Assembly (NCBI RefSeq): GCF_011174775.1
Contig: NZ_JAANHS010000009.1
Coordinates: 62,001-126,000, forward strand
Length of the DNA stretch: 64,000 bases
Source of the DNA: Rhodobacter calidifons
Lineage (GTDB): Bacteria > Pseudomonadota > Alphaproteobacteria > Rhodobacterales > Rhodobacteraceae
Direction: 5' to 3'
In this document: positions 8,483 through 48,639 of the stretch, in pieces
Numbering within the stretch: position 1 is the stretch's first letter
Layout: every line of letters starts with the position of its first letter
Position numbers and translations under genes: made by a program
The notes under the pieces: model-generated
Told to the model about the DNA's origin: nothing
Databases searched by the model: none
The model's input: the letters and a program-made list of their open reading frames with translations, nothing else

Positions 8483-8501
8483 GGATTTGCGCGCGCGGGA
8501 T

Positions 8502-8509: not shown

Positions 8510-8512
8510 CTC

Positions 8513-8540
8513 TTGATTGCCGGGCAGATGCCGTCATAAA
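8513..8540 (+). promoter_or_regulatory. Sigma-70-like promoter for the GntR regulator
   Basis: TTGATT (8513-8518) and CATAAA (8535-8540) are separated by 16 bases, an acceptable -35/-10 pair. The adjacent TTGATCAA palindrome would allow autoregulation. Confidence 0.4.
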
Positions 8541-8564
8541 GGGCCTCAGTCGAAGGGAGCCCCG

Positions 8565-9221: not shown

Positions 9222-9293
9222 CGGGTTTCGAATTGAGCGCTGACGCGCGAGGCTTTTGTCTCGTCGTCGGGCTTCGCCTCCTCCTCGGGTGAT

Positions 9294-9308
9294 GGGGGCG
9301 CTGCCCCC
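9294..9308. repeat. GC-rich hairpin of a family-wide intergenic repeat
   Basis: GGGGGC-GCT-GCCCCC forms a 6-bp stem followed by AAACCCCCGGAGTATTT. I recall near-identical strings after genes throughout Rhodobacteraceae genomes, which is taxonomic evidence; here it probably ends the GntR transcript. The repeat call is from memory, not from a search. Confidence 0.4.
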
Positions 9309-9360
9309 AAACCCCCGGAGTATTTGAAACATGGGCAAGAGCCATGCCGGGTCGAAAAAT

Positions 9361-9397
9361 TTGATCAAATTTCTTGAACCGGACTGCGTTTGATCAT
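9361..9397. promoter_or_regulatory. Two TTGATCA-type sites upstream of the aminotransferase
   Basis: TTGATCAA at 9361-9368 and TTGATCAT at 9390-9397 are 29 bases apart centre to centre, close to three helical turns. They match the site upstream of the adjacent GntR gene (8502-8509), supporting cooperative binding by that regulator. The aminotransferase starts 55 bases downstream. Confidence 0.45.
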
Positions 9398-9451
9398 ATC
9401 CTGCGGCGAAGACGGGGCATCCGGCCCTGCCGATTCCCGCGAGGTCAGCCC

Positions 9452-11480: not shown

Positions 11481-12335
11481 ATGGAAATGAGCCGCGCCTC
11501 GGATGCCTTCGCGACACTGGGTCACCCCGGTCGCCTCGCGGTTTTCCGGCTGTTGATGCGCTTTGTCCCGCAGGGCGCGCGTCCGACCGAAATCGCCGCA
11601 GCGCTTGGCCTGAAGCCGAACACCCTGTCCCATCACCTGGCCGACCTGACCGCTGCGGGGCTGGTCAGCGCCCGCCGCCAGGGCCGGTCGCTGTTCTACT
11701 CCGTCGATCTGGACGCCGCCGAGGGGCTGATCGGCTATCTCGCCCTCGATGTCGCTCGCGCCCGGCCCGATCTTCTCGCCCCGCTCCTCTCTGCGCACAA
11801 GGATGCCTCTCCGATGACCGCCCAGCACCCCGATACCGACTTCGACGTCCTGTTCATCTGCTCGGGCAACTCGGCCCGCTCGATCTTTGCCGAGGTGCTC
11901 TTGCGCGATCTCGGCAAGGGCAAGTTCCAGGCCTTTTCCGCCGGAACCCGACCGGGCACCGAGCTGAACCCCTTCGCGCTCGACGTCCTGTGCCGCAACG
12001 GCCATGACGTGACCGGCCTGCGCTCCAAGCACATCTCCGAATTCCAGCAGCCCGACAGCATCGTGATGGATTTCGTCTTCACCGTCTGCGACACGGCCGC
12101 GGCCGAGGAATGCCCGCCCTGGCCCGGCCAGCCGATCACCGGCCACTGGGGCCTGCCCGACCCGGTGAAGGCTACCGGCACCGATGCCGAAAAGGCTTTG
12201 GTCTTCGCCCAGACCTATGCAGCGCTGCGTCGCCGGATCGCCGCCTTCGTCGAACTGCCCTTCGAAAGCCTGAACCGGCTGTCCCTGCAATCCCGCGTCG
12301 ATGCCCTCAGCGCCGACGCCGACGCAAAGGCCTGA
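11481..12335 (+). CDS. ArsR repressor fused to ArsC-type arsenate reductase/low-MW phosphatase
   Basis: A 284-residue fusion. Residues about 5-95 form an ArsR winged helix ([13 protein letters not shown], then [13 protein letters not shown] as recognition helix). From about 115 a low-molecular-weight-phosphatase domain begins with the catalytic P-loop [11 protein letters not shown] (C-x5-R) and ends with the WGLPDP acid-loop motif. The second domain would reduce arsenate to arsenite, the ligand of the first. The ATG at 11481 (or 11487) is preferred over 11433 because the operator-like palindrome lies at 11463-11478 and ArsR homology begins there. GAPDH follows after 5 bases and arsJ follows that, one arsenate-resistance operon. 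Confidence 0.9.
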
Positions 12336-12340
12336 CCCGG

Positions 12341-13348
12341 ATGCCTCGCATTGCCCTGAACGGCCTTGGCCGCATCGGAAAGCTTGTCCTGCGCGACCTG
12401 ATCGACACGGGCGCGGAAGGCGAGATCGTCCTGCTGAACGACCCCGTCGGCGACGCGGAACAGCATGCGCTCCTGCTGGAATTCGACAGTGTGCACGGCC
12501 GCTGGTCCACGCCGGTCGGCGCAGCCGAAGGCGCGCTGGTCCTGAACGGCCGGAGGATCCGGCTGACCCACGAGAAGACCATCGAGGCGCTGCCCCTGGC
12601 GGATCTGGGCGTCGATCTGGTCATCGACTGCACCGGCGTGTTCAAGACTGCCGCAAAGGTGGCGCCCTATCATGCAGCCGGGGTGAAGAAGGTGGTCGTC
12701 TCGGCCCCGGTGAAGGACGGGGGCGCGCTGAACCTGGTCTATGGCGTGAACCATCACCTCTACGACGGCAGCCAGGCGCTGGTCACGGCGGCCTCCTGCA
12801 CCACCAACTGCCTGGCCCCGGTGGTCAAGGTGATCCACGAGGCGCTGGGCATCCGGCACGGTTCCATCACCACGATCCATGACGTGACCAACACGCAGAC
12901 CATCGTGGACCGACCGGCCAAGGACATGCGCCGGGCGCGGTCGGCCCTGATGAACCTGATCCCGACCACGACCGGCAGCGCCACCGCGATCACGCTGATC
13001 TACCCCGAACTCAAGGGCCGCCTGAACGGCCACGCCGTCCGCGTGCCGCTTCTGAACGCCTCGCTGACCGACTGCGTGTTCGAGGTCGAACGGCCGACCA
13101 CGGTCGAAGAGGTCAACACGCTCTTCGCCGCCGCAGCGGAAGGCCCGCTGAAGGGCATCCTCGGCTACGAGACCCGGCCCCTTGTCAGTTGCGACTTCAC
13201 CAACGACCCGCGGTCCTCGATCATTGACGGCCCGTCCACCATGGTGATCAACGGGACCCAGGTGAAGATCTACGCCTGGTATGACAATGAATGGGGCTAT
13301 GCCTGCCGGCTGGCCGACATCGCCCGCATGGTCGCCCGAAGCCTCTGA
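12341..13348 (+). CDS. ArsJ-associated glyceraldehyde-3-phosphate dehydrogenase
   Basis: A 335-residue type I GAPDH. The NAD domain starts [17 protein letters not shown]; the catalytic cysteine is in SCTTNCLAP (near residue 151), followed by the conserved [11 protein letters not shown] and the C-terminal WYDNEWGYA. In arsenic operons this enzyme is known to use arsenate in place of phosphate, making 1-arseno-3-phosphoglycerate, which ArsJ exports (established for Pseudomonas aeruginosa). The position between arsRC and arsJ supports that role over a glycolytic one. The start at 12341 follows the arsRC stop by 5 bases. Confidence 0.94.
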
Positions 13349-13375
13349 TCTTCGATCCTTATCAAGGTATCCTCT

Positions 13376-13408
13376 GGCGGACCGGGGGCAAGGCGCCCCC
13401 GGTCCGCC
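13376..13408 (+). other. Strong stem-loop between gapdh and arsJ
   Basis: A perfect 14-bp stem: GGCGGACCGGGGGC at 13376-13389 and its complement at 13395-13408, with loop AAGGC. No T-tract follows; arsJ starts 20 bases later with its ribosome site in CGAAAGG. It could set the gapdh:arsJ ratio by stabilising the upstream message or partly blocking readthrough. Confidence 0.6.
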
Positions 13409-13428
13409 GCCAGCGAAAGGCGCTGCCG

Positions 13429-14676
13429 ATGACCACCGCGAACCCGCTGCGCGCCTATGCCGCCGTCACGGCGGCCTACTGGGCCTTCATGCTGTCGGAC
13501 GGCGCGCTGCGGATGCTGGTGCTCTTGCACTTCAACAGCCTTGGCTTCACCCCGGTGCAACTGGCCTGGCTGTTCCTGCTGTATGAAATCGCGGGCATCG
13601 TCACCAACCTGGCTGCGGGCTGGCTTGCCGCCCGCTTCGGCCTCGCCGCGACGCTTTACGGTGGCCTCGCGCTCCAGATCGGCGCGCTGGCGGCGCTGGC
13701 GCAGCTGGATCCGACCTGGGGCGTTGCGGCCTCGGTCGCCTTCGTGATGGCGGTGCAGGGCGTCTCGGGTGTGGCGAAGGACCTTGCCAAGATGTCCTCG
13801 AAATCTGCGGTGAAGCTGCTGGCACCCCAGGAGGACGGCGGGCTCTTCCGCTGGGTCGCGGCGCTGACCGGGTCGAAGAACGCGGTGAAGGGCCTGGGCT
13901 TCTTCCTGGGCGCGGCGCTTCTGGCACTTGCGGGCTTCGAGGCGGCGGTCTGGGGCATGGCCGGAGTTCTGGCGGCGATCCTGATCGCGGTCGTCCTGTT
14001 CCTGCCCGCGGGCCTTCCGGGCCGGATGAAATCCGAAGAGGCCTGGGGCGGCTGGCGGTCGAAGGACCCAAGGGTGAACCGGCTGAGCCTTGCGCGCCTG
14101 TTCCTGTTCGGCGCGCGCGACGTCTGGTTCGTGGTGGGCATCCCGGTCTATTTCCAGTCGGTCCTGTCCGATGGCAGCGCCGAGGGCCGGCGCGAGGCCT
14201 TCTTCCTTATCGGCGGCTTCCTTGCGCTGTGGATCATCGCCTATGGCGCGGTGCAGGCCATGGCGCCCCGCCTTCTGGGCAGCAGAGCCCAGGCCGAGGC
14301 CGAGACGACCCGCAAGGCCATTCTCTGGGCCGGGCTTCTGGTGCCGATCCCCTTCCTTCTGGCCGCAGCCGCCTGGGCGGCAGCGCCGCCCGCGCCCTGG
14401 CTGACCGCCACGCTGATCGGCGGGCTTCTGGTGTTCGGCTTTGTCTTTGCGGTGAATTCCTCGGTCCATTCCTATCTGATCCTCGCCTACGGATCGGCCG
14501 AGCGGATCACGCGGGACGTGGGCTTCTACTACATGGCCAATGCCGCCGGTCGTCTGATCGGCACGCTTCTGTCCGGCCTCAGCTACCAGATCGGTGGACT
14601 GCCGCTCTGCCTTGCCACCGCGGGGCTGATGGCGCTTGCCAGCTGGCTTGCCGCCCGACGGCTTCGGGACGTCTGA
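13429..14676 (+). CDS. arsJ: ArsJ, organoarsenical (1-arseno-3-phosphoglycerate) efflux permease
   Basis: A 415-residue major-facilitator protein with about 12 hydrophobic segments. The N-terminus YAAVTAAYWAFMLSDGALRM and the cytoplasmic segment KDLAKMSSKSAVKLLAP are characteristic of ArsJ. It sits in the inner membrane and, with the preceding GAPDH, completes an arsenate detoxification route that needs no arsenite pump. The start at 13429 begins the conserved region; a longer frame runs back through the gapdh end and the hairpin. It is last in the operon. Confidence 0.93.
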   Translation: MTTANPLRAYAAVTAAYWAFMLSDGALRMLVLLHFNSLGFTPVQLAWLFLLYEIAGIVTNLAAGWLAARFGLAATLYGGLALQIGALAALAQLDPTWGVAASVAFVMAVQGVSGVAKDLAKMSSKSAVKLLAPQEDGGLFRWVAALTGSKNAVKGLGFFLGAALLALAGFEAAVWGMAGVLAAILIAVVLFLPAGLPGRMKSEEAWGGWRSKDPRVNRLSLARLFLFGARDVWFVVGIPVYFQSVLSDGSAEGRREAFFLIGGFLALWIIAYGAVQAMAPRLLGSRAQAEAETTRKAILWAGLLVPIPFLLAAAAWAAAPPAPWLTATLIGGLLVFGFVFAVNSSVHSYLILAYGSAERITRDVGFYYMANAAGRLIGTLLSGLSYQIGGLPLCLATAGLMALASWLAARRLRDV

Positions 14677-15047
14677 CGGCATCCCTTCCTTCTGGCCTTC
14701 CGCGCACTCCGTGTGCGGCCTTCGCCATCGGGCCGCAGTCCCGGCACCTCCGTCTGCGCAGGCCCGCGCCCTCCTGCATCACAACCCGAGACACTGCCCC
14801 GGCAAACACGAAGCGGTTGCTTTTGTGAAGAATTCACCGAACCGACACGGTCATGAGGTCCAGAGAATATCGGCCCTGAGAGACCGCTTCCGGGCCACCT
14901 GTCAGCAGGGCCAGTGCTCGGACACACCCGCATAACCCTTGAAAACCACGGAACAATCCGACCAGCCCTGGATAGGGGAACGCTTTCGCAGGGTGAAGTG
15001 GCGGCGAGGTTTGGCCTGACATCCGACCTTCGCTGCCGGTTTGCGGC
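14677..15047. other. Convergent interval between arsJ and the M48 protease gene
   Basis: About 370 bases between two converging genes. I found no coding frame with recognisable motifs and no clear T-tailed terminator. It is the boundary between the arsenic operon and the stress-tolerance island; an attachment site or old junction could lie here, but no repeat supports one. Confidence 0.35.
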
Positions 15048-15992
15048 TCAGAACCACAGTCCCGAGCGGTGAAAGCGCGGCGGGGAGGGCGGCGCCGAAG
15101 CCGGTGGCAGGTGCAGGGTCAAAGGGTCCGCTGCGACGCGGTGCGGCACCTGCCTCAGGGCGCGCAGGCGGGCGATGCGCTCTTCGGTCGGCGGGTGGGT
15201 GCGCAGAAGCGAGGGCTCGGGAATGCGCCGTCCGGGAAGGAACATCTCTTCCCAGAAGCGCCCGGTGCGGCGCTCGAGTTTGGCCAGCGCCGAGGCAAGG
15301 CCGGCCGGATCGCCGGTCAGTTCGGCGGCCGCCCGGTCGGCGTCGTATTCGCGCTGGCGCGACAGGGCCAGTTGCAGCAGCGCCATGATCGTGGGCGAGA
15401 AGGCCAGGACAAGCGGCAGGGTCCAGGGAATGGTCGCGACGCCCGCGATCAGCAGCGGCAGGTTCACCAGAAGCAGCATCTGCCCCAGCCAGCTGGCCAG
15501 CGAAACGGCACGCGACATCGCATCGGCCAGCCCCATCAGCCACAGGTCGCGGTTGGCGACATGGGCGATCTCATGCGCCAGCACCCCGGCCATCTCGCGC
15601 GGGGACAGAAGCCGGATCAGCCCGTCGGTCACGCAGATCACGCTGTCCTCCGGCCGACCCATGGCAAAGGCATTGGGGATCCGGCTGGGCACATACCACA
15701 GTTCCGGCGCGCGCGGCAGACCGGCGCGGGCCACCAGATCGCGCAGCAGGGCATGGCCCGCGGGCCAGTCCTGCGGGCGCAACGGCCGCGCCCGGTAGCC
15801 GCGCAGGAGCAGCCCTCGCGAGACCGAGGGCGCCAGCAACAGTCCGGCGAGCGTCGAGGCGACGAGGATCAGGGTCAGGTCGGGTCCGGCGACAAGCCCC
15901 ACCACCGCCCAGGCGATGCCTGCCATTCCGGCAAGGATCAGCACGGTCTGGGCAAGGTTGGTCAGGCGGTGGGCAAGATTGGGGGTCATCAT
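15048..15992 (-). CDS. M48-family membrane zinc metalloprotease (HtpX-like)
   Basis: A 314-residue membrane protease. Two hydrophobic segments (near residues 12-55) precede the zinc motif HEIAH (in VLAHEIAHVANRD, near 130); two further segments follow (LGQMLLLVNLPLLIAGVA and the next), and the third zinc ligand is in REYDADRAAAEL. HtpX-type enzymes degrade misfolded inner-membrane proteins. The start MMTPNLAHRL at 15992 is chosen because the family-like membrane helix begins there; the ribosome site is weak and the frame is open to 16061. It is last in the hsp20-protease operon, as in tLST-type islands. Confidence 0.88.
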   Translation of the reverse strand: MMTPNLAHRLTNLAQTVLILAGMAGIAWAVVGLVAGPDLTLILVASTLAGLLLAPSVSRGLLLRGYRARPLRPQDWPAGHALLRDLVARAGLPRAPELWYVPSRIPNAFAMGRPEDSVICVTDGLIRLLSPREMAGVLAHEIAHVANRDLWLMGLADAMSRAVSLASWLGQMLLLVNLPLLIAGVATIPWTLPLVLAFSPTIMALLQLALSRQREYDADRAAAELTGDPAGLASALAKLERRTGRFWEEMFLPGRRIPEPSLLRTHPPTEERIARLRALRQVPHRVAADPLTLHLPPASAPPSPPRFHRSGLWF

Positions 15993-16090
15993 GGGACTCG
16001 GATTCGCAAGGGGCAGCAAGCCCCGTCCCGCAGCGAAGGCAAGGCACCCGTCGCGCGTCACCGCAGCGACAGGTGCCGTCGGCTTGCCGC

Positions 16091-17494
16091 TCAGCGCGGC
16101 AGGACGACGAAGACCTCGCGCCCGTCGCGCCAGACCAGCAGTCCCACGGCATTGCCGGAGGCGGCTTCAAGCGCCGCGGCCAGATCCTCGGGGCGGGTGA
16201 CCGGGCGGCGGTTGACGGCCAGGATCACGTCGCCGGGTTGCAGCCCGGCCTGTGCCGCAGGGCTGCGCGGGGCGACGGCCACGACCGACAGCCCCTCGAC
16301 CGTGCCATAGCCGGGCATCCCCGGCGCCAGCGGTTGCAGCGTCAGGCCCGCCAGTTCGGCCGGAGCGGCAGAGGTGGCCGCCGCGTCAAGCCTGTCGAGC
16401 GTCACGTCGATGCCCTGCCGTTCCCCGTCGCGCCAGATGTCCAGCTTCACCGTGTCGCCGGGCCGCCGCATGCCGACACGACCGCGCAGATCGGCCGAGC
16501 CGCGCAGCGCGTGGCCGTCGATGGCCAGGATCGCATCGCCCGCCCGCAGGCCCGCCCGGTCGGCGGCGCTGCCCGGATCGACCGAGCCCACCACCGCGCC
16601 GCCTGCGGCCTCGATCCCCATGGCCTCGGCCAGATCCGGGGTCAGATCCTGGATCGCCACGCCCAGCCGGCCCCGCGCCACCGTGCCGTGTTCGACCAGC
16701 TGTTCCATCACCGCCAGCGCCATGTTCACCGGCACGGCAAAGCCGATGCCCACGTTGCCGCCACCGTTCGGCGCGATGATCGCGCTGTTGATCCCGACCA
16801 GCTTCCCGTCCAGCGTGATCAGCGCGCCGCCCGAGTTGCCGGGATTGATCGAGGCATCGGTCTGGATGAAATCCTCATAGCCCTGAGGGTTGATCCCCGA
16901 CCGCCCCAGCGCCGAGACGATGCCCAAAGTCACCGTCTGGCCCAGGCCGAAAGGGTTGCCGATGGCCACGACGTAATCGCCCACCATCAGCGCATCGGAA
17001 TTGCCGGTCTCGACGGCGGTCAGCCCCTCGGCGGGGATCTTCAGCACGGCAATGTCGGTCGCGGGATCGGTGCCCACCAGTTCCGCCTTGACGCTGCGCC
17101 CGTCGCGCAAGGAGACGCGGATCTCGGTCGCGTCCTGGATGACGTGGTTGTTGGTCAGCACATGGCCGCGCTTGGCATCGACGATCACGCCGGAGCCTGC
17201 GCTCATCTGCCGCTCGACCGGGCCTTCGGGGGGCATGGGCGGCAGGAAGGGGGCGAAGAAGGGGTCGCGGTAGAGCGGCGACATCTGCGCCGGGCGCTCC
17301 GAGACCACCGAGATGTTGACCACCGCATCCGAGACACGCTCGACCACAGGGGCGAGGGTCGGAATGCCGCGGTCGTCGGCAAGCGCAGGGGCCGCGGTTT
17401 CGGCAAGGGCCGGGCCGGCAGGCAGCAGGACGGGGCCGGCGACCAGCGACAGCGCCAGCACACTGGCGCAGGTGGACAGGATCAGATGCTTCAT
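16091..17494 (-). CDS. Periplasmic Do-like serine protease/chaperone (DegP/DegQ family)
   Basis: A 467-residue exported protease. A signal peptide covers about residues 1-30 (MKHLILSTCASVLALSLVAG, then cleavage near ALA-ET). The trypsin-like domain has the triad H in LTNNHVI, D in PATDIAVLKI and S in NPGNSGGAL; two PDZ domains follow (about 255-345 and 370-465). It removes or refolds damaged envelope proteins. The start at 17494 has GGAGG 5 bases upstream. It lies directly after an hsp20 gene and before the M48 protease, an arrangement seen in mobile stress-tolerance loci. Confidence 0.94.
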   Translation of the reverse strand: MKHLILSTCASVLALSLVAGPVLLPAGPALAETAAPALADDRGIPTLAPVVERVSDAVVNISVVSERPAQMSPLYRDPFFAPFLPPMPPEGPVERQMSAGSGVIVDAKRGHVLTNNHVIQDATEIRVSLRDGRSVKAELVGTDPATDIAVLKIPAEGLTAVETGNSDALMVGDYVVAIGNPFGLGQTVTLGIVSALGRSGINPQGYEDFIQTDASINPGNSGGALITLDGKLVGINSAIIAPNGGGNVGIGFAVPVNMALAVMEQLVEHGTVARGRLGVAIQDLTPDLAEAMGIEAAGGAVVGSVDPGSAADRAGLRAGDAILAIDGHALRGSADLRGRVGMRRPGDTVKLDIWRDGERQGIDVTLDRLDAAATSAAPAELAGLTLQPLAPGMPGYGTVEGLSVVAVAPRSPAAQAGLQPGDVILAVNRRPVTRPEDLAAALEAASGNAVGLLVWRDGREVFVVLPR

Positions 17495-17544
17495 GAAAGC
17501 CTCCAAAGGAAGGGGGGTGCCGGGCGGCACCCCCGGATGCGGCC

Positions 17545-18042
17545 TCAACCGGCCTTGACCTCGATATGCTTGACGCGGGCCTGGGCCTCGGGCGTCTGCG
17601 GCAGGCGCACGGTCAGCACGCCGTTCTTGAAGCTGGCCTCGGCCTTTTCGCCATCGACGCCGGGCGGCAGCGGGATGGTGCGCCAGATCGCGCCATAGCT
17701 GCGTTCGGACAGGTAATAGCCCTTCTTCTCCTCCTGGCGCTCGACCTTCTTCTCGCCCTTCACCGTCAGCATGTCGTCGGTGACGCTGACCTCGATGTCG
17801 TCCATCGTCATGCCGGGCAGCTCGATCGAGATTTCCACGGCGTTGTCGGTCTGGACCACGTCGGATTTGGCCTCGGAATGGCCCCAGGGCCAGTCAAGGT
17901 CGCCAAGGCCCTTGCCGAAACGGTTCCAGAAACCTTCGAACACCTGGTTCATCTCGCGTTGCAGGGTGGCGATGGGGTTCTCGCGGTCGGGATGGGCGGC
18001 GTCATCCTTGCGCGCCCAGGGGATCAGATCCTTGATCTTCAT
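17545..18042 (-). CDS. Hsp20 small heat-shock protein (third of three)
   Basis: A 165-residue alpha-crystallin-type holdase. The N-terminal arm includes TLQREMNQVFEGFW; the alpha-crystallin domain (about 60-155) contains VEISIELPGMTMDDIEV, the G-rich tail motif FKNGVLTVRLP and a short C-terminal extension. The N-terminal arm resembles the larger class of proteobacterial Hsp20s with a tryptophan-rich FGKGLGDLDWPW stretch. A GAAAGGAG ribosome site precedes the ATG. It is co-oriented with two further hsp20 genes 20 and 18 bases apart, so one heat-shock transcript is likely. Confidence 0.95.
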   Translation of the reverse strand: MKIKDLIPWARKDDAAHPDRENPIATLQREMNQVFEGFWNRFGKGLGDLDWPWGHSEAKSDVVQTDNAVEISIELPGMTMDDIEVSVTDDMLTVKGEKKVERQEEKKGYYLSERSYGAIWRTIPLPPGVDGEKAEASFKNGVLTVRLPQTPEAQARVKHIEVKAG

Positions 18043-18062
18043 GGTCGTTCTCCTTTCCTGTC

Positions 18063-18464
18063 TTAGGCAGCCTTGACCTTGATGGTCTTGGGCTGCGACG
18101 CTTCGGCACGCGGCAGGTGCAGGGTCAGCACGCCATTCTTCAGCTGGGCCTCGATCTTTTCGGCATCGAAATCATCCGAGAGGGTGAAGGCGCGCTCGTA
18201 ATCGCCCGCCTCGTATTCGGCGTGGACCAGCCGCAGCTTGTCGGGCGAGGCGACCGAGGATTTCGCGCGGATCGTCAGCACGCGCTTTTCCAGCGCCACG
18301 TCCACATCCTCGGCGGCGACACCGGGCAGTTCCAGCATCAGCGTCACGCCCTCTTTCGTCTCGACGATATCGGCCAGCGGGCGCCAGATCCGGCGGGCGC
18401 GGGCCGGTTCGGCCTGGGTTTCGGCCGGGGTCTGTTCGGGGGCCTTGGTCACTTCGGTGCTCAT
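18063..18464 (-). CDS. Hsp20 small heat-shock protein (second of three)
   Basis: A 133-residue small heat-shock protein with a charged, disordered N-terminus (about 1-25) and an alpha-crystallin domain: GVTLMLELPGVAAEDVDVAL, then LKNGVLTLHLP near the end. It lacks a clear C-terminal I/V-x-I/V anchor beyond TIKVKA, the usual form in this subgroup. It belongs to the Hsp20 type found in tLST islands, where paralogues of different surfaces prevent aggregation before ClpK disaggregates the load. It is the middle gene of the triplet. Confidence 0.94.
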   Translation of the reverse strand: MSTEVTKAPEQTPAETQAEPARARRIWRPLADIVETKEGVTLMLELPGVAAEDVDVALEKRVLTIRAKSSVASPDKLRLVHAEYEAGDYERAFTLSDDFDAEKIEAQLKNGVLTLHLPRAEASQPKTIKVKAA

Positions 18465-18482
18465 GGGTCTCTCCTCCTTCTT

Positions 18483-18905
18483 TCAGGCGGCCTTGATGGC
18501 AATGCGGCGCGGCTTGTCCTCGTCGGGGCGGCCCACGGCAATGCGCAGCACGCCGTCGGCAAAGCGGGCCTCGACCTTCTCGGGATCGACGCGGAACGGC
18601 AGGCGGATGGCGCGGGTGAAGCGGCCGAAGGCACGCTCGCGGCGGTGCCAGGTGGCGCCTTCCGGCAGGTCGGGGGCCTTGCGCTCGCCCGAGAGCGTCA
18701 GGACATTGTCCTTGACCTGGATGTCGATGTCGGAAGGCTCGACGCCGGGAAGTTCGGCGGTGATCGCCGCGGCCTCGTCATTCTGCCAGACATTCAGCGC
18801 GGGGAAGGATCGGCTGGCGCCGAAGGCGAGGCTGTCCAGATCCTCGGACAGACGCCGCATCAGCGCGAAGGGATCGGCGGGGTAGAGAGCAGTGCGGTAA
18901 AGCAT
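18483..18905 (-). CDS. Hsp20 small heat-shock protein (first of three)
   Basis: A 140-residue alpha-crystallin-domain protein (ITAELPGVEPSDIDIQV near 48-64, FADGVLRIAV near 117). The N-terminal arm PFALMRRLSEDLDSLAFG matches the short Hsp20 class that opens tLST islands. It is the first gene after a sigma-32-like promoter, and its ribosome site AAGGAGG lies in a hairpin (18914-18948), suggesting temperature control of translation. The start at 18905 is fixed by this strong Shine-Dalgarno sequence 6 bases upstream. Confidence 0.95.
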   Translation of the reverse strand: MLYRTALYPADPFALMRRLSEDLDSLAFGASRSFPALNVWQNDEAAAITAELPGVEPSDIDIQVKDNVLTLSGERKAPDLPEGATWHRRERAFGRFTRAIRLPFRVDPEKVEARFADGVLRIAVGRPDEDKPRRIAIKAA

Positions 18906-18913
18906 GGGTCACC

Positions 18914-18948
18914 TCCTTCGGTTGGCGCCCGCACCGGGCCACGAAGGA
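18914..18948 (-). promoter_or_regulatory. Candidate RNA-thermometer hairpin covering the hsp20 ribosome site
   Basis: In the transcript, UCCUUCG (plus positions 18948-18942) pairs perfectly with CGAAGGA (18920-18914), the latter being most of the Shine-Dalgarno sequence. Four more pairs, UGGC/GCCA, stack above a 2-base bulge. The leader from the promoter is about 170 bases, as in ROSE-type thermometers of alphaproteobacterial hsp20 genes. Melting on heating would free the ribosome site. Inferred from pairing only. Confidence 0.55.
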
Positions 18949-19087
18949 CGGGACGGCTGCGCAGCAACGCGCACCGCAGGAAAGCAACTGGACGTCACCG
19001 ACCGGACCCTTGCGGCGCCCTTCGGTGGCCTGCCATTGCGGCCAGACCCGTCATCTTTCGTGAACCCCGTTCGGGCGTTCCCTGCTG

Positions 19088-19116
19088 ATAAAGGAAGCGG
19101 GGAACGGCATTTCAAG
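19088..19116 (-). promoter_or_regulatory. Sigma-32 (RpoH)-type promoter for the hsp20 operon
   Basis: On the minus strand CTTGAA (19116-19111) and CTTTAT (19093-19088) are 17 bases apart, close to the alphaproteobacterial RpoH consensus (CTTGAA, 17-18 bases, CYTAT). It reads toward the first hsp20 gene, about 180 bases away, and would drive the three hsp20 genes and the two proteases. Confidence 0.6.
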
Positions 19117-19149
19117 ACCCGGCAGAGGAAGAAATAATCGCTTTCTTCC

Positions 19150-19199
19150 ATAGGCTTGCCGGTCAAGCCTATTGGGGCGGCCCCGACTGGCGCCGCCCC
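19150..19199 (-). terminator. Two stem-loops after clpK
   Basis: GGGGCGGC (19174-19181) pairs with GCCGCCCC (19192-19199), and ATAGGCTTG (19150-19158) pairs perfectly with CAAGCCTAT (19164-19172). Both lie just past the clpK stop and before the hsp20 promoter. There is no T-tract, so intrinsic termination is likely only partial. Confidence 0.45.
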
Positions 19200-19222
19200 T
19201 CGATGCTGGTCCGCTGACAGGG

Positions 19223-22021
<2,799 letters not shown>

Positions 22022-22086
22022 GGAGTTCCCTTTCCAATGGCTTATGTTCGTCTATCGTCGGATCGGGCCGCCGACCTTGATCCCGG

Positions 22087-22581
22087 TCAATCCCGATCGG
22101 CGACGCGCCTGCCCTGAACGATGGCTTCCCTGTCCTGCCGCCGGATGATCCAGTAGATGCCCCCCAGCGCCAGCGTGGCGAAGGCCAACGCGGCGATGGT
22201 GGCGGCGTCGGTCTTGTCCAGATCGAGGATGATGAACTTGCGCAACATCGCCAGCAGCGCCACCAGCACCACGGTGCGCACATGGAACACGGTGTCATGC
22301 GTCTCGACCGAGACCACGATCGAGCGCTTGAACTCCAGCGCGATGATGACGGTGAAGATCGCGCCGAACACCGCCTGGAAAACCGCGTGGTCGGTAGGGT
22401 CCAGCGCGCCTTCGATCACCAGCCCCACCATGACGCGCAGGAACAGGTTCCACATCGCCGCAAGAACCACCACGATCAGCAGGGCCGAGAGCACAAGCGT
22501 CACGAGCTGCTCGAAGCGCTGGTAGAAGGTCAGCACCTTCCAGCGGTCGATGAAATCCTTCCAGTCCGAACGCATCGACAT
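22087..22581 (-). CDS. psiE: PsiE-family inner-membrane protein
   Basis: A 164-residue protein with four hydrophobic segments (about 28-48, 65-85, 103-118, 126-145) between basic ends. The pattern and length match the phosphate-starvation-inducible PsiE family. Its function is unknown, but it recurs in tLST/TLPQC islands next to ftsH and clpK, as here: ftsH ends 4 bases upstream. Translational coupling with ftsH is likely. Confidence 0.85.
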   Translation of the reverse strand: MSMRSDWKDFIDRWKVLTFYQRFEQLVTLVLSALLIVVVLAAMWNLFLRVMVGLVIEGALDPTDHAVFQAVFGAIFTVIIALEFKRSIVVSVETHDTVFHVRTVVLVALLAMLRKFIILDLDKTDAATIAALAFATLALGGIYWIIRRQDREAIVQGRRVADRD

Positions 22582-22585
22582 CGGG

Positions 22586-24400
22586 CTACTCCGCCGCCTG
22601 GGCCACGGGCTTGAGCGCGGGAAAGTCGTCGGGCGTGATCGTTTCGCGCTCGAGCAGCAGGCGCGTGCCGGCCTCCAGATCGGCGCGGCGGTCGGTCAGC
22701 ACCTGTTTCGCCCGCGCATAGGCGGCGTCGATCAGGGCGCGCACGGCCAGATCCACCTCGCGCGCGGTCGCCTCGGAGTAGTCGCGCGGGCTCAGCCCCG
22801 GCGCGCCGTCGCCGAGGAAGCTCTGCCGCTCGGGCTCCAGCACGGCCTGGCCCAGATCGGGGTGCATCCCGAAGCGGGTGACGATCTGGCGGGCGATGTC
22901 GGTGACGCGCGCCAGGTCGTCAGCCGCCCCGGTCGAGATCTCGCCCAGCACCAGATCCTCGGCCGCCCGGCCCGCCAGCAGCACCACCATGCGGTTTTCC
23001 AGATCCGCCCGGGTGATGAGGAAGCGGTCCTCGGTGGGCCGCGTCATGGTGTAGCCGAGCGCGCCGATCGAGCGCGGGATGATCGAGACCTTGTGCACCG
23101 GATCCGCCCCCGGCAGGCTGGCGGCGGCCAGCGCATGGCCCATCTCGTGCCAGGCCACCGCCTCGCGTTCCTTCGGGTTCAGCAGCCGGCCCTTGCGCTC
23201 GAGCCCGGCGACGATGCGCTCGATGGCCGCCGTGACATCGGCCATGGTCACCGCCTCGGCGCCCCTCCGGGTGGCCTGGATCGCGGCCTCGTTGACCAGG
23301 TTCGCCAGTTCCGCCCCCGAGAACCCCGGCGTCAGCGCGGCGATCTGGTCCACGTCCAGCCCCTCGTGCGTCACCTTCTTCAGATGCACCCGCAGGATCG
23401 CGGCGCGCCCGCCCTTGTCGGGGCGGTCCACCACCACCTGCCGGTCGAAGCGGCCTGCGCGCAGAAGCGCGGGGTCGAGGATCTCGGGCCGGTTGGTCGC
23501 GGCCAGAAGCACGATCCCCTCGCGCGGGTCGAAGCCGTCAAGCTCGGTCAGAAGCTGGTTCAGCGTCTGCTCCTTCTCGTCATGCCCGCCGCCGAAGGCG
23601 CCAACGCCGCGCTTCTTGCCGAGCGCGTCCAGCTCGTCGATGAAGATGATGCAGGGCGCGGCCTTGCGGGCCTGCTCGAACAGGTCGCGCACCCGCGCGG
23701 CGCCGACGCCTACGAACATTTCCACGAATTCCGAGCCGGAGATGGAGAAGAACGGCACCCCGGCCTCGCCCGCCACGGCGCGGGCGACCAGCGTCTTGCC
23801 GGTGCCGGGGGGGCCCACCAGCAGGATGCCCTTGGGGATGCGCGCGCCAAGCCGGCCGTATTTCTGCGGCTCCTTCAGGAAGCTGACGATCTCCTGCAAC
23901 TCGGCCTTGGCCTCGTCGATCCCGGCCACGTCGGCGAAGGTGACGCCGGTGTCCTTCTCGACATAGACCTTGGCCTTCGACTTGCCGACCGTCATCATGC
24001 CGCCGAAGCCCTGCTTCTCGGCGATCTTGCGGAACACCAGCATCCAGAGGCCGAAGAAGACCAGCACCGGCAGCACCCAGGACAGAAGCTGCGACAGGAA
24101 GGTGTTGGTCACCGTGCCGTCGTATTCGGCGCTCGACTGCTCCAGCCGCCGGGTCAGGTCCTCGGGGACGATGTTGGTGATGAAATACTCCGCGCCGTCG
24201 CGGGGTTCGCGGTAGCGACCGATCACCCGTTCGGTCTGCACCTGCACCTCGGCGATCTGGTCCTTCTCAAGCAGTTCGATGAAGCGCGAATAGGGGATGC
24301 GCTCGGTGACAGAGGCCCCCTGCCACCAGGACTGGAACAGCATCAGCAGAAGGAAGGCCGCGATCCAGTACCAGATGTTGATCTGCTGTTCCCTGTTCAT
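22586..24400 (-). CDS. ftsH: FtsH-type ATP-dependent zinc metalloprotease
   Basis: A 604-residue membrane protease. Transmembrane segments lie near residues 8-26 and 112-132, with a small periplasmic domain between. The AAA domain has [19 protein letters not shown] (near 195), Walker [12 protein letters not shown] and the second region of homology [20 protein letters not shown]. The zinc site is HEMGH (near 413). It is shorter than housekeeping FtsH and lacks the long C-terminal tail, like the island-borne second copies. The start at 24400 begins the membrane segment; the frame is open further upstream without a ribosome site. Confidence 0.94.
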
Positions 24401-24665
24401 GCTTGGCCTCTCTTCTTCTGCCCTCTTGCGCCAAAGTCCGGTCAAGCCCACTGCGCGGTCAGCGCCCCCTGTGGTGGCGCAGCCCACGACCAACCATGCC
24501 CGCCGGTCCGCACCACCACGGGGCAGGCCGGGCCTTTCTCTGCTCTTGAACGGAAACGCGCCAAACCTCAGATGCTTACTATGTCGAAAGAAAGCGGAAA
24601 CTCAACCCGCAAGGGAGATGTCCGGATCTGCCAATCTGATCTTTCGAAAGACAGGAGCAATCGCG

Positions 24666-24998
24666 ATGGATCATGGCCGCAATCGACCCTTGTCCGCACC
24701 ACGCATCCCGGGGACTGACATGCGCAGTCCCGATGTGCCGCTGGCGATCATCCGCCGGCCCGCACGGTCGGCGACGCAATCGGGACCGCGTCCGCGACAC
24801 TGGGTTCTGGAGTTCGAGCCCTCCCGCGCGCCGGAGCTTGACCCGCTGATGGGCTGGACCACAGGCGACGATCCCTGTCGGACCATCCGGCTTCAGTTTC
24901 CCGATGCCGCAAGCGCGATCCGCCATGCCGAGAGTCAGGACTGGCGCTACATCGTTCTTGCGGAGCCTCGTGCTGCGCAGGCGCCCGCAAAGTCGTAG
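24666..24998 (+). CDS. NDUFS4-like (complex I 18-kDa accessory subunit) protein
   Basis: A 110-residue protein. Residues about 25-105 match the ETC complex I subunit family: HWVLEFEPSRAPELDPLMGW, then TIRLQFPDAASAIRHAESQ and W-Y. Alphaproteobacteria already carry one NDUFS4 homologue for their respiratory complex I, so this is probably a divergent second copy. An ATG at 24666 has CAGGAG 8 bases upstream; another in-frame ATG at 24720 lacks one. It is divergent from ftsH (265-base shared promoter region), so it belongs to the stress island by position. Its role there is unknown. Confidence 0.75.
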   Translation: MDHGRNRPLSAPRIPGTDMRSPDVPLAIIRRPARSATQSGPRPRHWVLEFEPSRAPELDPLMGWTTGDDPCRTIRLQFPDAASAIRHAESQDWRYIVLAEPRAAQAPAKS

Positions 24999-25159
24999 CG
25001 TAGCGCGACCGATGATGCGAGGCACCGGCTGTTCAGGGGGGTGGATGTGCCGGGTGCCCGGCGCTTGACCTATCCCGCCATCGCCTTGCCGAGCCAGCTG
25101 GCCCAGCCTGGGGATCGCCGGTCGGCCACCGAGTCCGCGACGGCGGCCGGGGTCGGTGC

Positions 25160-26299
25160 CTACAGCAGTCCCCGCCTTGCCAGGTTCGCCATCAGGGCCC
25201 GTATCCCGAAGGTCCATTCCGGGCACTGGGTGGAAAGGTTCACGCTGTTGCACAGGGCGCCAAGGCCCGGTGCGGAGATGATGACCTTGTCTCCGATCTT
25301 GTGTGTGAACCCGCCACCGGGTTCGTCGCGGTCCTGAGTCGGGGCAAAGAGCGTTCCCAGAAACAGCATCAGGCCGTCGGGATACTGATGATGACGGCCG
25401 ATCGTCTGCGAGACCAGATCGGCCGGATCGCGGCTGATCTGCGACATCGAGGATGTTCCGTCCAGAACAAAGCCGTCCGGCCCCTCGACACGGAGCGTCA
25501 GTTCGGCGCGGCGCACGTCATCCAGCCCGAAGTCCGCATCGAACAGGCGCAGGAACGGCCCGATGGCGCAGGAGGCATTGTTGTCCTTGGCCTTGGCAAG
25601 CAGAAGCGCCGAACGCCCCTCGACATCGCGCAGGTTCACGTCGTTGCCAAGCGTCGCCCCCACGATCCGGCCCTTCGAGGAGACGGCCAGCACCACCTCC
25701 GGCTCGGGGTTGTTCCATCTGGAGACGGGGTGCAGGCCGATGTCGGCCCCGTGCCCCACGGCCGACAGGACCTGCGCCTTCGAGAAGACCTCGGCATCCG
25801 GGCCGATTCCGACCTCCAGATACTGGCTCCACAAGCCCTCGGCCTGAAGCGCGGCCTTGGCGGCCATCGCCTCGGGCGAACCGGGACGGATGTTGCGCAG
25901 CGAATTCCCGATTGCCGCGCCGACGCGCCGGCGGATCTCTTCCGCGCGGGCAGGATCGCCGCCCGCGCGTTCCTCGATCACGCGCTCCACCATCGAGCCC
26001 GCGAAGGTCACGCCGCAGGCCTTGATCGCGTGCAGATCGCAAGGCGCCAGCAGATGCGGCACCGACAGGTCGCCGACCTTCGCCGCGAGCAGCGCGTCGA
26101 GTGCCGCGACCCTGCGGCCCGCCGCCGCACGGACATATCCGGCGGGATCATCCATCTCGCAAATATCGCGCACGAGCGGGGCCTCGCACGAGGTGATGTC
26201 CCAGACCACCCCGTCCCGCAGCGTCACGACCGATGGGCCCTGAACCTCGGGGGTCCAGATACGGCCGACAAGCGTGGCATCACGCGGAAGGGTCTGCAT
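25160..26299 (-). CDS. FAH-family 2-keto-3-deoxypentonate dehydratase (XylX-like)
   Basis: A 379-residue fumarylacetoacetate-hydrolase-fold enzyme. It follows Caulobacter XylX closely in recalled sequence: LLAPCDLHAIKACGVTFAGS, LWSQYLEVGIGPDAEVFSK, WNNPEPEVVLAVSSKGRI, GNDVNLRDVEGRSALLL and KDNNASCAIGPFLRLFD. XylX removes water from 2-keto-3-deoxy-D-xylonate to give alpha-ketoglutarate semialdehyde (Weimberg pathway). Metal ligands E and D lie in the NNPEPE segment and FLGTLFAPTQDRD. The start has CTGGAG 8 bases upstream and overlaps the epimerase stop by 20 bases. It is last in the pentose operon. Confidence 0.88.
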   Translation of the reverse strand: MQTLPRDATLVGRIWTPEVQGPSVVTLRDGVVWDITSCEAPLVRDICEMDDPAGYVRAAAGRRVAALDALLAAKVGDLSVPHLLAPCDLHAIKACGVTFAGSMVERVIEERAGGDPARAEEIRRRVGAAIGNSLRNIRPGSPEAMAAKAALQAEGLWSQYLEVGIGPDAEVFSKAQVLSAVGHGADIGLHPVSRWNNPEPEVVLAVSSKGRIVGATLGNDVNLRDVEGRSALLLAKAKDNNASCAIGPFLRLFDADFGLDDVRRAELTLRVEGPDGFVLDGTSSMSQISRDPADLVSQTIGRHHQYPDGLMLFLGTLFAPTQDRDEPGGGFTHKIGDKVIISAPGLGALCNSVNLSTQCPEWTFGIRALMANLARRGLL

Positions 26300-27155
26300 T
26301 CACGGATCTCCAGGTCAGGGTCATGCCGAAGGCCATCGTTTCACCCGGCCGAAGAAACCGCAGGCCGGGCTGGCCGGCAAGGGCATGTGCATCCACCGGA
26401 TGCGAGACGGGTTCAAGGCAGAAGAAATCGGCGGCACGTCCCGGCGAATAAAGCAGCAGGGTCGAAAGGCCCGTTGCCTCCAGCGTGCAGGACATGGCCT
26501 CCGGCCCCTGCCGGATCAGGGCCGAACCGGTCCAGCCGTCGAAGCCTGCATTGATCCAGCCCTCGGGAAGCAGCCGAAGCCCCCGGTAATCCAGCGCATC
26601 GGGTATCGGCTCCGGCGCTTGCGTCCGGGGCAGGTGCCGGGCGTTCTCCGGCCACCAGCCATTTGCCTGAAAGGCAATCCGCGTGAGTTCGGACCGTGGA
26701 AACCACGGATGGAAACCGCCGCCGAAGGGCAGGGGGCCATCCGCCCTGTTGCGCAGCACCAGCGAGGCATCAAGGCTGTCCGGGCAAAGGCGATAGGTCA
26801 GCCGCGCCGCATGGCGCAGGGGTCCGAAGGCCCCGTCCGGCAGGTCGAGGCAGACCGTGTCGGGGGCATGTCCTTGCACCTGCCAGGGCCTCTGGAAGGC
26901 ATCGCCATGGATCGGGAAGGGTTCTCCGGCAAGGTTCGGCGTCAGACGAACAGGTTTCCCGTCCACCAGAACGGGAACCGAAACACGGTTCGAGAACGGG
27001 GCGAGGATGTTCATGGCCCAGGCGAAGGGGTCCGCCTCGCATCCCGCCCGCAACGGGCGCAGGACCGGCTGCCCCGCGACGTCCAGCGCCGCCAGAGCCG
27101 CCCCGTGCCGGGCTCCGACCAGAGCCCTTGCCGCCCCAGCGCGCAGTTCGATCAC
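26280..27155 (-). CDS. Aldose 1-epimerase (mutarotase)
   Basis: A 291-residue beta-sandwich protein of the galactose mutarotase fold. Family segments: NILAPFSNRVS near 49, the histidine in FPIHGDAFQRPWQV near 85, GGFHPWFPR near 148, and a glutamate in FFCLEPVSHPVDA near 250 as the catalytic base. It interconverts the anomers of the imported sugar so that the 1-dehydrogenase receives the beta form. It overlaps the dehydratase gene by 20 bases and follows the SDR by 10 bases. Confidence 0.9.
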   Translation of the reverse strand: MIELRAGAARALVGARHGAALAALDVAGQPVLRPLRAGCEADPFAWAMNILAPFSNRVSVPVLVDGKPVRLTPNLAGEPFPIHGDAFQRPWQVQGHAPDTVCLDLPDGAFGPLRHAARLTYRLCPDSLDASLVLRNRADGPLPFGGGFHPWFPRSELTRIAFQANGWWPENARHLPRTQAPEPIPDALDYRGLRLLPEGWINAGFDGWTGSALIRQGPEAMSCTLEATGLSTLLLYSPGRAADFFCLEPVSHPVDAHALAGQPGLRFLRPGETMAFGMTLTWRSVNADPSA

Positions 27156-27165
27156 CGCGGCGCCC

Positions 27166-27879
27166 TCACCACCCGCCGTCGACGGCGATGTTCTGACCCG
27201 AGATCATGCGCGCCGCGTCCGAACACAGGAACAGCGCAAGATCGGCCACGTCCTCGGGCCGGATGCGCGACTTGATGCACTGCCGTTCCAGCACCCAGGC
27301 GTTGTATTGCTCCAGCCGGTCGGCAAAGACGCGGTTCTCGGCCTCGGACACGACAGCACCCGGCGAGATGGCATTGACCGTGATCCCCTTCGGCCCCAGT
27401 TCGCGGGCAAAGCCCTTGGTCAGGCCCAGCGTCGCGCCCTTGGAGGCGACGTAAGGCACATAGCCGTCCCATTGCCCGTTCAGCGTGATCGAGGTCAGGT
27501 TCACGATCCGGCCCCAGCCCTTCGCCGCCATGCCGGGCGCCACCGTGCGGCAAAGGACGAAGGCCGCCGAGGAATTGACCCGGATCTGATCCTCGTATTC
27601 CGCCAGACTGAAGGCGTCATGCGGCTTGTTGATGATGAGGGCGGCGTTGTTGATCAGCACATCGACGGGGTCGCCCGCAACCAGATCGGCCACGCCCGCC
27701 TCTGTTGCTGCCAGATCGTTCAGGTCGACGCCCAGCCAGCCCATCCCTTCGGGCGCCTGCCCCCCGGGCCGGTCCAGCACCGTCACGCGGTGGCCTGCCG
27801 TTGCAAAGGCCGAGGCCATGGCGCGCCCTATCGTGCCAAGCCCGCCGGTGATGAGAGCATGTCTGCGTGTTTCTGCCAT
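27166..27879 (-). CDS. SDR oxidoreductase, probable sugar 1-dehydrogenase
   Basis: A 237-residue short-chain dehydrogenase: cofactor motif TGGLGTIGRA (near 10), NNAAL near 82, catalytic serine in NLTSITLNG, YVASK near 147 and the C-terminal QNIAVDGGW. Context (mutarotase, lactonase, sugar-acid dehydratase, XylX-like enzyme) suggests oxidation of an aldopentose to its lactone, the XylB step. Chosen start 27879 has GGGAG 6 bases upstream; an upstream extension overlaps the transporter ATPase end and is unlikely. The sugar itself is not determined. Confidence 0.85.
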   Translation of the reverse strand: MAETRRHALITGGLGTIGRAMASAFATAGHRVTVLDRPGGQAPEGMGWLGVDLNDLAATEAGVADLVAGDPVDVLINNAALIINKPHDAFSLAEYEDQIRVNSSAAFVLCRTVAPGMAAKGWGRIVNLTSITLNGQWDGYVPYVASKGATLGLTKGFARELGPKGITVNAISPGAVVSEAENRVFADRLEQYNAWVLERQCIKSRIRPEDVADLALFLCSDAARMISGQNIAVDGGW

Positions 27880-48628: not shown

Positions 48629-48639
48629 CTTACGTGCTC

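What the first reader, a model, noticed from the sequence alone, without database searches (positions are those of the whole stretch)
15048..24998. A compact tLST-type protein-quality-control island in an alphaproteobacterium
Eight minus-strand genes (ftsH, psiE, clpK, three hsp20, Do-like protease, M48 protease) match the core of transmissible loci of stress tolerance known mainly from beta- and gammaproteobacteria. Here yfdX, hdeD, thioredoxin and kef-type genes of the classical island are absent, there are three consecutive hsp20 genes after clpK, and an arsenate operon lies beside it. It may be a reduced lineage of the island.
Basis: partly seen in the sequence, partly recalled or inferred. 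Interest (0 to 1): 0.7.

Follow-up and report, generated by a model that had tools for sequence, protein, structure and literature searches.

The report
Mobile compact heat-shock repair gene island
This bacterium carries a compact, horizontally moving set of genes that probably rescue or destroy heat-damaged proteins, related to the heat-resistance islands of food and hospital bacteria but with parts of partly separate ancestry.

Summary
Eight minus-strand genes at 15048-24400 encode FtsH, PsiE, a ClpK-type disaggregase, three Hsp20s, a Do protease and an M48 protease. ClpK has the zinc-ligand residues and short M-domain of ClpG/ClpK. In my trees it is sister to enterobacterial ClpK, not part of the larger Paracoccus/Shinella-type clade; no P. 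aeruginosa or betaproteobacterial island ClpK was available. Full-length ClpK is in 3 of 32 genomes of the genus, and 13 of 394 of the family have a ClpK-type match. A 12.3-kb block including the island is 96% identical to one other species, on otherwise unrelated contigs, against 87% for core DNA. The ClpK tree rejects the genus as one clade; rpoC supports it. So the island moves laterally. A fuller version in another genus supports 'reduced'. The three Hsp20s are an old orthologous trio, not a new expansion, and the arsenic operon beside it is incidental. Reduced proteostasis-only islands in alphaproteobacteria are already in print. Verdict: new variant of a known kind, moderately interesting; function inferred, not tested.

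The parts
15048..15992 (-). M48 zinc metalloprotease (HtpX-like); start uncertain (15992 or 16061)
   Evidence: PF01435 113 bits; HtpX-like NCBIfam matches below cut-off; 67% over 267 residues to the M48 of the Limimaricola plasmid island; HEIAH
16091..17494 (-). Do/DegP-like serine protease with two PDZ domains
   Evidence: TIGR02037 468 bits, cut-off 416; 57% to the Do protease of the Limimaricola island; GNSGG
17545..18042 (-). small heat shock protein C
   Evidence: PF00011 80.5 bits; 76% to Paracoccus yeei hsp3; class C in the tree
18063..18464 (-). small heat shock protein B
   Evidence: PF00011 71.5 bits; 58% to P. yeei hsp2
18483..18905 (-). small heat shock protein A
   Evidence: PF00011 78.6 bits; 61% to P. 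yeei hsp1
19223..22021 (-). ClpK/ClpG-type disaggregase, 932 aa, with N1 zinc-ligand residues (C5/C8/C30/H33), two AAA modules, short M-domain
   Evidence: NF033606 1659 bits (cut-off 1900 not reached); N1 alignment; trees
22087..22581 (-). PsiE family membrane protein
   Evidence: PF06146 100.7 bits, cut-off 23.9
22586..24400 (-). island FtsH protease; a second FtsH on another contig of the genome is 50% identical
   Evidence: TIGR01241 758 bits; start; second copy; HEMGH
24666..24998 (+). NDUS4-like ORF (complex I accessory subunit family), 110 aa, divergent from ftsH; ends at a TAG upstream of where homologues continue
   Evidence: PF04800 68.6 bits; NDUS4-like ORF in 16 of 21 alphaproteobacterial ClpK loci; early stop shared with G031
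14998..27314 (.). block shared with one other species of the genus (G031) at 95.9% DNA identity on otherwise unrelated contigs; right end lies inside an SDR gene

Best explanation
This is a compact, laterally moving protein-quality-control island of the tLST/ClpK family in what looks like a Rhodobacterales species. One minus-strand gene run encodes a proteostasis chain. Three small heat shock proteins hold unfolding proteins. ClpK binds aggregates through its zinc-containing N1 domain and threads polypeptides out without DnaK. FtsH at the inner membrane and the M48 and Do proteases at the membrane and periplasm remove what cannot be rescued. PsiE is a membrane protein of unknown role. The most likely benefit is survival of sudden proteotoxic stress such as heat or oxidants. 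Shown here: gene content, conserved ClpK residues and protease motifs, patchy distribution, lateral exchange within and between genera, and a fuller relative. Inferred from characterised homologues: the biochemical roles, locations, co-transcription and phenotype.
For: Gene content and motifs. N1 residues C5/C8/C30/H33 align with C6/C9/C31/H34 of P. aeruginosa ClpG, and V16/V20 with V17/L21 (with passages of PMC10641755). Spacing between the two Walker A motifs is 340 residues as in E. coli ClpK, against 397 in the genome's ClpB-like protein, in line with the short M-domain of ClpG (passages of PMC6995612). A ClpB-like protein (named by me from length and motif spacing), a second FtsH and two more Hsp20s exist elsewhere in the genome. 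Full-length ClpK in 3 of 32 genus genomes, 3 of the 23 of good quality; ClpK-type match in 13 of 394 family genomes. The 12.3-kb block is 96.3% identical to G031, against a maximum of 93.4% and a mean of 87.4% in 157 overlapping 12-kb windows of a 180-kb core stretch; outside the block the two contigs share one stretch of 300 bp or more, of 310 bp (2 kb of C59 not read). Genus monophyly of ClpK rejected, AU p 0.00014, while rpoC groups the genus at 100/99. Fuller island in G1098.
Against: No integrase, transposase, tRNA or listed flanking repeat at the edges (all 18 gene calls of 9452-36396 outside the island were searched). The only integrase-core ORF among the 30 of 53 non-island gene calls searched in the window is about 26 kb away (50738-51460). 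No sigma-70-like site in the region, and a rough heat-shock (RpoH) pattern scan gave one match, on the other strand inside the gene run. Single 1-kb core windows between G000 and G031 reach 98.1%, and 11 of 154 equal or exceed the island median, so the excess is clear only over 12 kb. ClpK misses the NCBIfam ClpK cut-off (1659 of 1900), as the Paracoccus one does (1610). No expression or phenotype data.
Confidence: 0.82

Rival explanations
1. An ancestral chromosomal proteostasis operon of the genus, inherited vertically and lost in most species; not mobile.
For: G002 carries it with the same gene order as far as its contig reaches (it ends after Do), at 84.8% DNA identity, which is ordinary for that species pair (rpoBC region 88.5%, clpB region 81%). 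No mobile element found at the edges.
Against: 29 of 32 genus genomes, 20 of 23 good ones, show no full-length ClpK. ClpK of a different genus (G122) groups with G000 and G031 at 100/99, and holding the genus together is rejected (p 0.00014). The G031 block is more similar than core over 12 kb and sits in an unrelated context with a cut SDR gene.
Confidence: 0.12
2. A direct reduced descendant of the classical enterobacterial/betaproteobacterial tLST that entered the alphaproteobacteria and lost genes.
For: ClpK is sister to E. coli/Aeromonas/Raoultella ClpK at 100/99, and holding the window-type and Paracoccus-type ClpKs together is rejected (p 0.003 without G331, 0.023 with it; groups named after seeing the tree).
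Against: Hsp20s are at most 39% identical to the E. coli island pair but 58-76% to the Paracoccus trio. FtsH is equally far from both (63%), and its tree leans the other way without deciding (87/80; p 0.127). The order differs, and cls, yfdX, hdeD are absent. DNA identity of clpK to classical plasmids is about 76-80%, just under the >80% quoted for tLST (PMC8290217).
Confidence: 0.15
3. A decaying remnant that no longer works as a unit.
For: The NDUS4-like ORF ends at a TAG before homology ends, in both G000 and G031. Related islands have lost hsp20s, Do or psiE (G122, G322). Two solute-binding-protein genes nearby carry in-frame TAG codons.
Against: The eight island proteins have near-complete Pfam or NCBIfam coverage, ClpK zinc and Walker motifs and the protease motifs are intact, and all eight genes remain open in G031 at 92-99%.
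Confidence: 0.07

Closest known systems
tLST / TLPQC / LHR (transmissible locus of stress tolerance) of E. coli, Klebsiella, P. aeruginosa; reference used: E. coli FAM21805 plasmid NZ_KY416992
   Same: ClpK 76% identical and sister in the tree; FtsH 63%. M48 (orf15) and, by implication, DegP are in the classical island (PMC8290217 Figure 1 legend). A partial PsiE match lies at the end of the E. coli island; psiE in classical islands is otherwise my recall. Laterally mobile
   Different: No cls, yfdX1/2, hdeD, trx, kefB; other gene order; Hsp20s at most 39% identical; an NDUS4-like ORF is added; no Tn7-like or IS flank found
Alphaproteobacterial plasmid islands of the Paracoccus yeei / Shinella / Roseomonas / Methylorubrum type
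   Same: The same Hsp20 trio in the same order, NDUS4-like gene, FtsH, PsiE, ClpK 75%
   Different: Their ClpK is a separate clade; clpK-ftsH-marR divergent from hsp20s-psiE. P. yeei and Shinella keep kef, trx, clpP-like, rhomboid, hdeD and sigma in one arm; in the Roseomonas stretch kef, trx and clpP-like lie apart or broken, and in the Methylorubrum stretch they were not matched
Reduced proteostasis-only islands of Oceanicella actignis, Methylobacterium CCH7-A2, Siccirubricoccus phaeus (PMC8290217, Figure 2 legend)
   Same: Alphaproteobacterial, mostly the protein homeostasis part, occasional extra sHsp genes
   Different: Their sequences were not fetched here, so whether the window ClpK belongs to their ClpG2/ClpH subgroups is open
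   Same: ftsH-psiE-clpK-hspA-B-C-M48 at 71-93% identity, NDUS4 divergent
   Different: Keeps a Kef-type exchanger, a weakly matched sigma-like ORF, trx, clpP-like and rhomboid upstream of NDUS4; patatin and an unknown ORF in place of Do

Membership tests
ClpK/ClpG stand-alone disaggregase | N1 domain with zinc ligands C6/C9/C31/H34 | tested here: met
   C5/C8/C30/H33 in the window protein, aligned; defining residues from passages of PMC10641755
ClpK/ClpG stand-alone disaggregase | hydrophobic aggregate-binding residues V17 and L21 | tested here: met
   V16 and V20 at these columns; E. coli has V and L. L to V is conservative, not identical
ClpK/ClpG stand-alone disaggregase | two AAA modules with a shortened M-domain | tested here: met
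   Walker A spacing 340 (E. coli ClpK 340; the genome's ClpB-like protein 397; a ClpC 337)
ClpK/ClpG stand-alone disaggregase | NCBIfam ClpK model NF033606 score of at least 1900 | tested here: not met
   1659 bits; E. coli island ClpK 2147, P. yeei 1610; so it is called ClpK-type, not a named ClpK equivalog
ClpK/ClpG stand-alone disaggregase | DnaK-independent disaggregation | not testable with these tools
   needs protein assay
classical tLST | core order dna-hsp20-clpG | tested here: not met
   order here is ftsH-psiE-clpK-hsp20x3-Do-M48
classical tLST | cell-envelope and oxidative-stress modules (yfdX, hdeD, trx, kefB) and cls | tested here: not met
   no tblastn match at E<=1e-3 in the window
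classical tLST | DNA more than 80% conserved with other tLST | tested here: not met
   clpK 76-77% over 95-98% of the gene in the classical rows of a spread list, up to 79.7% in megablast pieces
classical tLST | flanked by mobile elements | tested here: not met
   none among the 18 gene calls flanking the island at 9452-36396; one integrase-core ORF at 50738-51460; 30 of 53 non-island gene calls searched in all
tLST-type island in the wide sense (mobile ClpK proteostasis island) | lateral transmission | tested here: met
tLST-type island in the wide sense (mobile ClpK proteostasis island) | confers heat or chlorine tolerance | not testable with these tools
   needs experiment
ClpG2_GI / ClpG3_GI / ClpH subgroups (PMC8290217) | clusters with O. 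actignis, P. putida Idaho or Methylobacterium CCH7-A2 proteins | not tested
   reference proteins not obtained here; only the review text was read

The most novel reading that the evidence does not exclude
Rhodobacterales carry a distinct ClpK lineage that is the sister group of the classical enterobacterial tLST ClpK, combined with the old alphaproteobacterial Hsp20 trio and an NDUS4-like respiratory accessory gene. The stress islands would then be mosaics assembled by swapping modules between alphaproteobacterial and beta/gammaproteobacterial pools, with environmental alphaproteobacteria as one reservoir, and complex I maintenance as an unrecognised part of their function.
Probability: 0.3. 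Interest if true: 0.5.

Novelty: new variant of a known kind. Interest (0 to 1): 0.36.

Why it matters
The origin of the heat- and chlorine-resistance island that spreads among food and hospital bacteria is unknown (PMC8290217, section 11). A Rhodobacterales lineage whose ClpK is sister to the enterobacterial one, with intermediate gene contents in several genera, gives concrete material for tracing how the island was assembled and reduced. The recurrent NDUS4-like gene is an untested lead: no paper in the held library has both words NDUFS4 and clpK.

Tried and rejected
Promoter patterns: 0 sigma-70-like sites against 0.7 expected, 5 terminator-like sites against 5.2 expected; only the hairpin at 17513-17534 (9 pairs, between hspC and Do) looks notable. 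A rough RpoH-like regular expression gave one match (22015, + strand). Nothing is claimed from these.

RNA families and tRNAs: none in the window. Flanking repeats: the listed families (20 of 51 direct, 25 of 50 inverted) show hsp20 paralogy and short scattered matches, no pair at the island's edges.

Plasmid origin: no RepC (PF03428) in G000 and no Rep3, so whether the 134-kb contig is a plasmid stays open.

Fourfold-site comparison: discarded for the core genes, because shadow frames on the wrong strand were scored as genes. The DNA windows replace it. In its island part, where frames are known, clpK in G122 and G322 (other genera) is about as similar to the window as in G002 (68.9, 70.5 and 71.6% of fourfold sites); ftsH likewise (63.5, 70.0, 68.0%).

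Amber readthrough as an explanation for three TAG-interrupted reading frames: rejected. In 332 kb, 17 coding-like frames continue past a stop, 3 of them past TAG, and most look like adjacent genes. That scan did not pick up the first solute-binding-protein stop. A check whether the G002 homologue of that gene is open returned no result.

An empty insertion site could not be shown: the FAA operon of G002 lies at a contig end with only 160 bp beyond it.

Gammaproteobacterial sampling for better placement of ClpK: 3 of 369 genomes matched, none of tLST type (62, 46 and 47% identity).

A ClpP-docking-loop comparison hit the pore loop instead, so nothing is said about ClpP binding.
Full report
Observation. 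The interval holds eight minus-strand genes in one run: ftsH 22586-24400, psiE 22087-22581, clpK 19223-22021, hsp20 A 18483-18905, B 18063-18464, C 17545-18042, Do protease 16091-17494, M48 protease 15048-15992. Protease motifs are intact. None of 20 further island proteins from E. coli, Paracoccus yeei and Limimaricola islands (Kef, Trx, YfdX, HdeD, cardiolipin synthase and others) has a match in the window at E<=1e-3.

Neighbours. On the left is an arsR-phosphatase fusion, GAPDH and MFS transporter (11556-14676); similar plasmid stretches are annotated arsJ and ArsJ-associated GAPDH. On the right is a sugar-acid type operon (FAA hydrolase, aldose epimerase, SDR, ABC transporter, mandelate-racemase family, GntR, gluconolactonase; 'sugar-acid' is my reading). 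No tRNA or Rfam family was found in the window, and no listed repeat pair at the island's edges.

ClpK identity. The protein matches the NCBIfam ClpK model best (1659 bits; cut-off 1900 not reached; P. yeei 1610, E. coli island 2147). Its N-terminus has C5/C8/C30/H33, aligned with the zinc ligands C6/C9/C31/H34 that passages of PMC10641755 report as needed in P. aeruginosa ClpG, and V16/V20 at the aggregate-binding positions V17/L21. Walker A spacing is 340 residues as in E. coli ClpK, against 397 in the genome's ClpB-like protein, fitting the short M-domain described in passages of PMC6995612. The genome also has that ClpB-like protein (named by me from length and spacing), a second FtsH 50% identical to the island one and two other Hsp20s.

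Distribution. Full-length ClpK (bits above 1800) is in 3 of 32 genomes of the genus, the window's own included: G000, G031 at 99%, G002 at 93%; 23 of the 32 pass 90% completeness and 5% contamination, these three among them. At E<=1e-200, ClpK-type matches are in 13 of 394 family genomes, 3 of 385 class genomes and 6 of 398 phylum genomes, each count including the window's own genome, and in 3 of 369 gammaproteobacterial genomes. Not all are of the window's type: of the 13 family genomes, G000, G031, G122 and G322 are; the phylum scan added G1098. In PLSDB, 1355 of 72,556 plasmid records match at E<=1e-200, 1103 of them Klebsiella.

Trees. The first tree has 34 rows, ClpB- and ClpC-like rows included (a 35th, L116, was left out as too short). 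The second has 29 rows (eight distant, long or short rows removed, G1098 and G1084 added). The window ClpK forms a clade with G031, G002, G122, G322 and, in the second tree, G1098: four genera by their handles. That clade is sister to E. coli, Aeromonas and Raoultella ClpK at 100/99. A separate clade holds 15 rows of the Paracoccus/Shinella/Roseomonas/Limimaricola type. Holding the window-type and Paracoccus-type rows together is rejected, p 0.003 without G331 and 0.023 with it; a ClpK-like row of a P. denitrificans plasmid, which joins Pseudomonas-type ClpG, was not in these tests. Holding the genus together (G000, G031, G002) is rejected, p 0.00014. These groups were named after the first tree had been seen, which weakens the p-values. 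rpoC, by contrast, joins the three at 100/99 (9 rows). No P. aeruginosa ClpG_GI or betaproteobacterial tLST ClpG was available, so 'sister of classical tLST' rests on three rows.

Mosaic histories. The three Hsp20s fall in three separate classes, each with the P. yeei protein of the same position (61, 58 and 76% identity), and are at most 39% identical to the two E. coli island Hsp20s. The Hsp20 tree is incomplete: only 13 further loci were given, and the selection missed G122's hspC, both core Hsp20s of G000 and some others. FtsH is 63% identical to both the Paracoccus and the E. coli island FtsH, and its tree does not decide between them (87/80; test p 0.127). So the trio is old, and ClpK alone clearly points to the classical side.

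Lateral exchange. Window 14998-27314 aligns with G031 over 12,370 columns at 95.9%, while outside it the 134-kb and 114-kb contigs share one stretch of 300 bp or more, of 310 bp (2 kb of C59 not read). In a 180-kb core stretch compared with its 172.5-kb counterpart the mean is 87.3% over 156 kb; the best of 157 overlapping 12-kb windows has 93.4%, and the island block 96.3%. Against this, single 1-kb core windows reach 98.1%, and 11 of 154 are at or above the island median. In G031 the block ends inside the SDR gene, which in the window reads through and has a close homologue in the matching operon of G002. This suggests that G031 received the block from a G000-like source. The ars operon is not part of the block: in 9 of 9 other genus loci held, homology stops at 14660-14676.

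Gene gain and loss. G1098 (another genus) keeps a Kef-type exchanger, a weakly matched sigma-like ORF, trx, clpP-like and rhomboid genes beyond NDUS4, and has patatin and an unknown ORF where the window has Do. P. yeei and Shinella islands carry the same arm kef-trx-clpP-rhomboid-NDUS4, so loss in the window lineage is the simpler reading. G122 lacks hspA and hspB, keeps about 100 bp of Do and shows psiE only in three weak pieces; G322 lacks all three hsp20s and Do (the G122 contig is 8.4 kb and ends inside M48). G002 has no NDUS4 in the 5.6 kb upstream of its island ftsH.

NDUS4-like gene. It occurs in 16 of 21 alphaproteobacterial ClpK loci of the two main types (six of the 16 supplied the profile, so 10 of 15 independent), in 0 of 7 other ClpK-like loci, 0 of 2 classical loci, and 0 of 78 distant ClpB/ClpC-type loci. 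The last set is mostly not alphaproteobacterial and partly short, so it is a weak control. In G000 and G031 the ORF ends at the same TAG although homology continues for about 25 codons; G1098 is open there. Its role is unknown. A guess is protection or assembly of complex I under stress.

Comparison with what is known. The review PMC8290217 (outline with abstract, and sections 3, 8 and 11 read) already reports alphaproteobacterial islands with mostly the protein homeostasis part and occasional extra sHsp genes, and ClpG2/ClpG3/ClpH subgroups. Nguyen et al. 2017 (PMC5347186, passages) describe a reduced island clade primarily in Klebsiella plasmids. Searches for tLST with Alphaproteobacteria, locus of heat resistance with Rhodobacteraceae, ClpG/disaggregase/Alphaproteobacteria and NDUFS4 with clpK returned no paper in the held library; clpK with Paracoccus and plasmid returned only the review. 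The library lacks most subscription journals.

Host. A Rhodobacterales placement is my inference from plasmid matches of the ars operon to Neotabrizicola, Paracoccus and Cereibacter.

Verdict. A real, laterally moving, compact ClpK proteostasis island; a new variant of a known kind. Mechanism inferred from homologues; phenotype untested.

Noticed in passing
window 29686-30666 (-) and 35248-36396 (+): Two solute-binding-protein genes are each interrupted by one in-frame TAG (30298-30300 and 35626) but otherwise open. A scan of 332 kb gave no sign of general TAG readthrough.
   Followed up: partly
window 24996-24998: The NDUS4-like island ORF ends at a TAG shared with G031 while homology to Paracoccus and G1098 continues downstream.
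   Followed up: partly
window 47528-51460: Stretch with lower GC at 49-51 kb, an integrase-core ORF (50738-51460), a DUF6362 ORF and a molybdopterin oxidoreductase fragment: possibly an old mobile-element scar.
   Followed up: no
L258 (G002:C13) 8266-10080: G002 has a further island-type FtsH, 75% identical to the window one, with no match to the other reference island proteins near it except a weak mscS one; only 18 kb of the contig were read.
   Followed up: partly
L175 (Limimaricola variabilis plasmid) 13156-19755: A hydrothermal-plume Limimaricola plasmid carries an enlarged island with a DnaJ-like gene, grpE, two HtpX/M48 genes, Do and three Hsp20s beside clpK-ftsH.
   Followed up: no
window 17513-17534 (-): A 9-pair G+C-rich hairpin with a T-rich tail between hspC and the Do gene, a possible attenuator; the total number of such sites equals chance.
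   Followed up: no
window 11556-14676 (+): The GAPDH gene of the arsenic operon has a match of 80% identity or more in 27 of 32 genus genomes (3 of them partial); in 9 of 9 other loci held nothing beyond the operon matches this window, so it too seems to move as a unit.
   Followed up: partly
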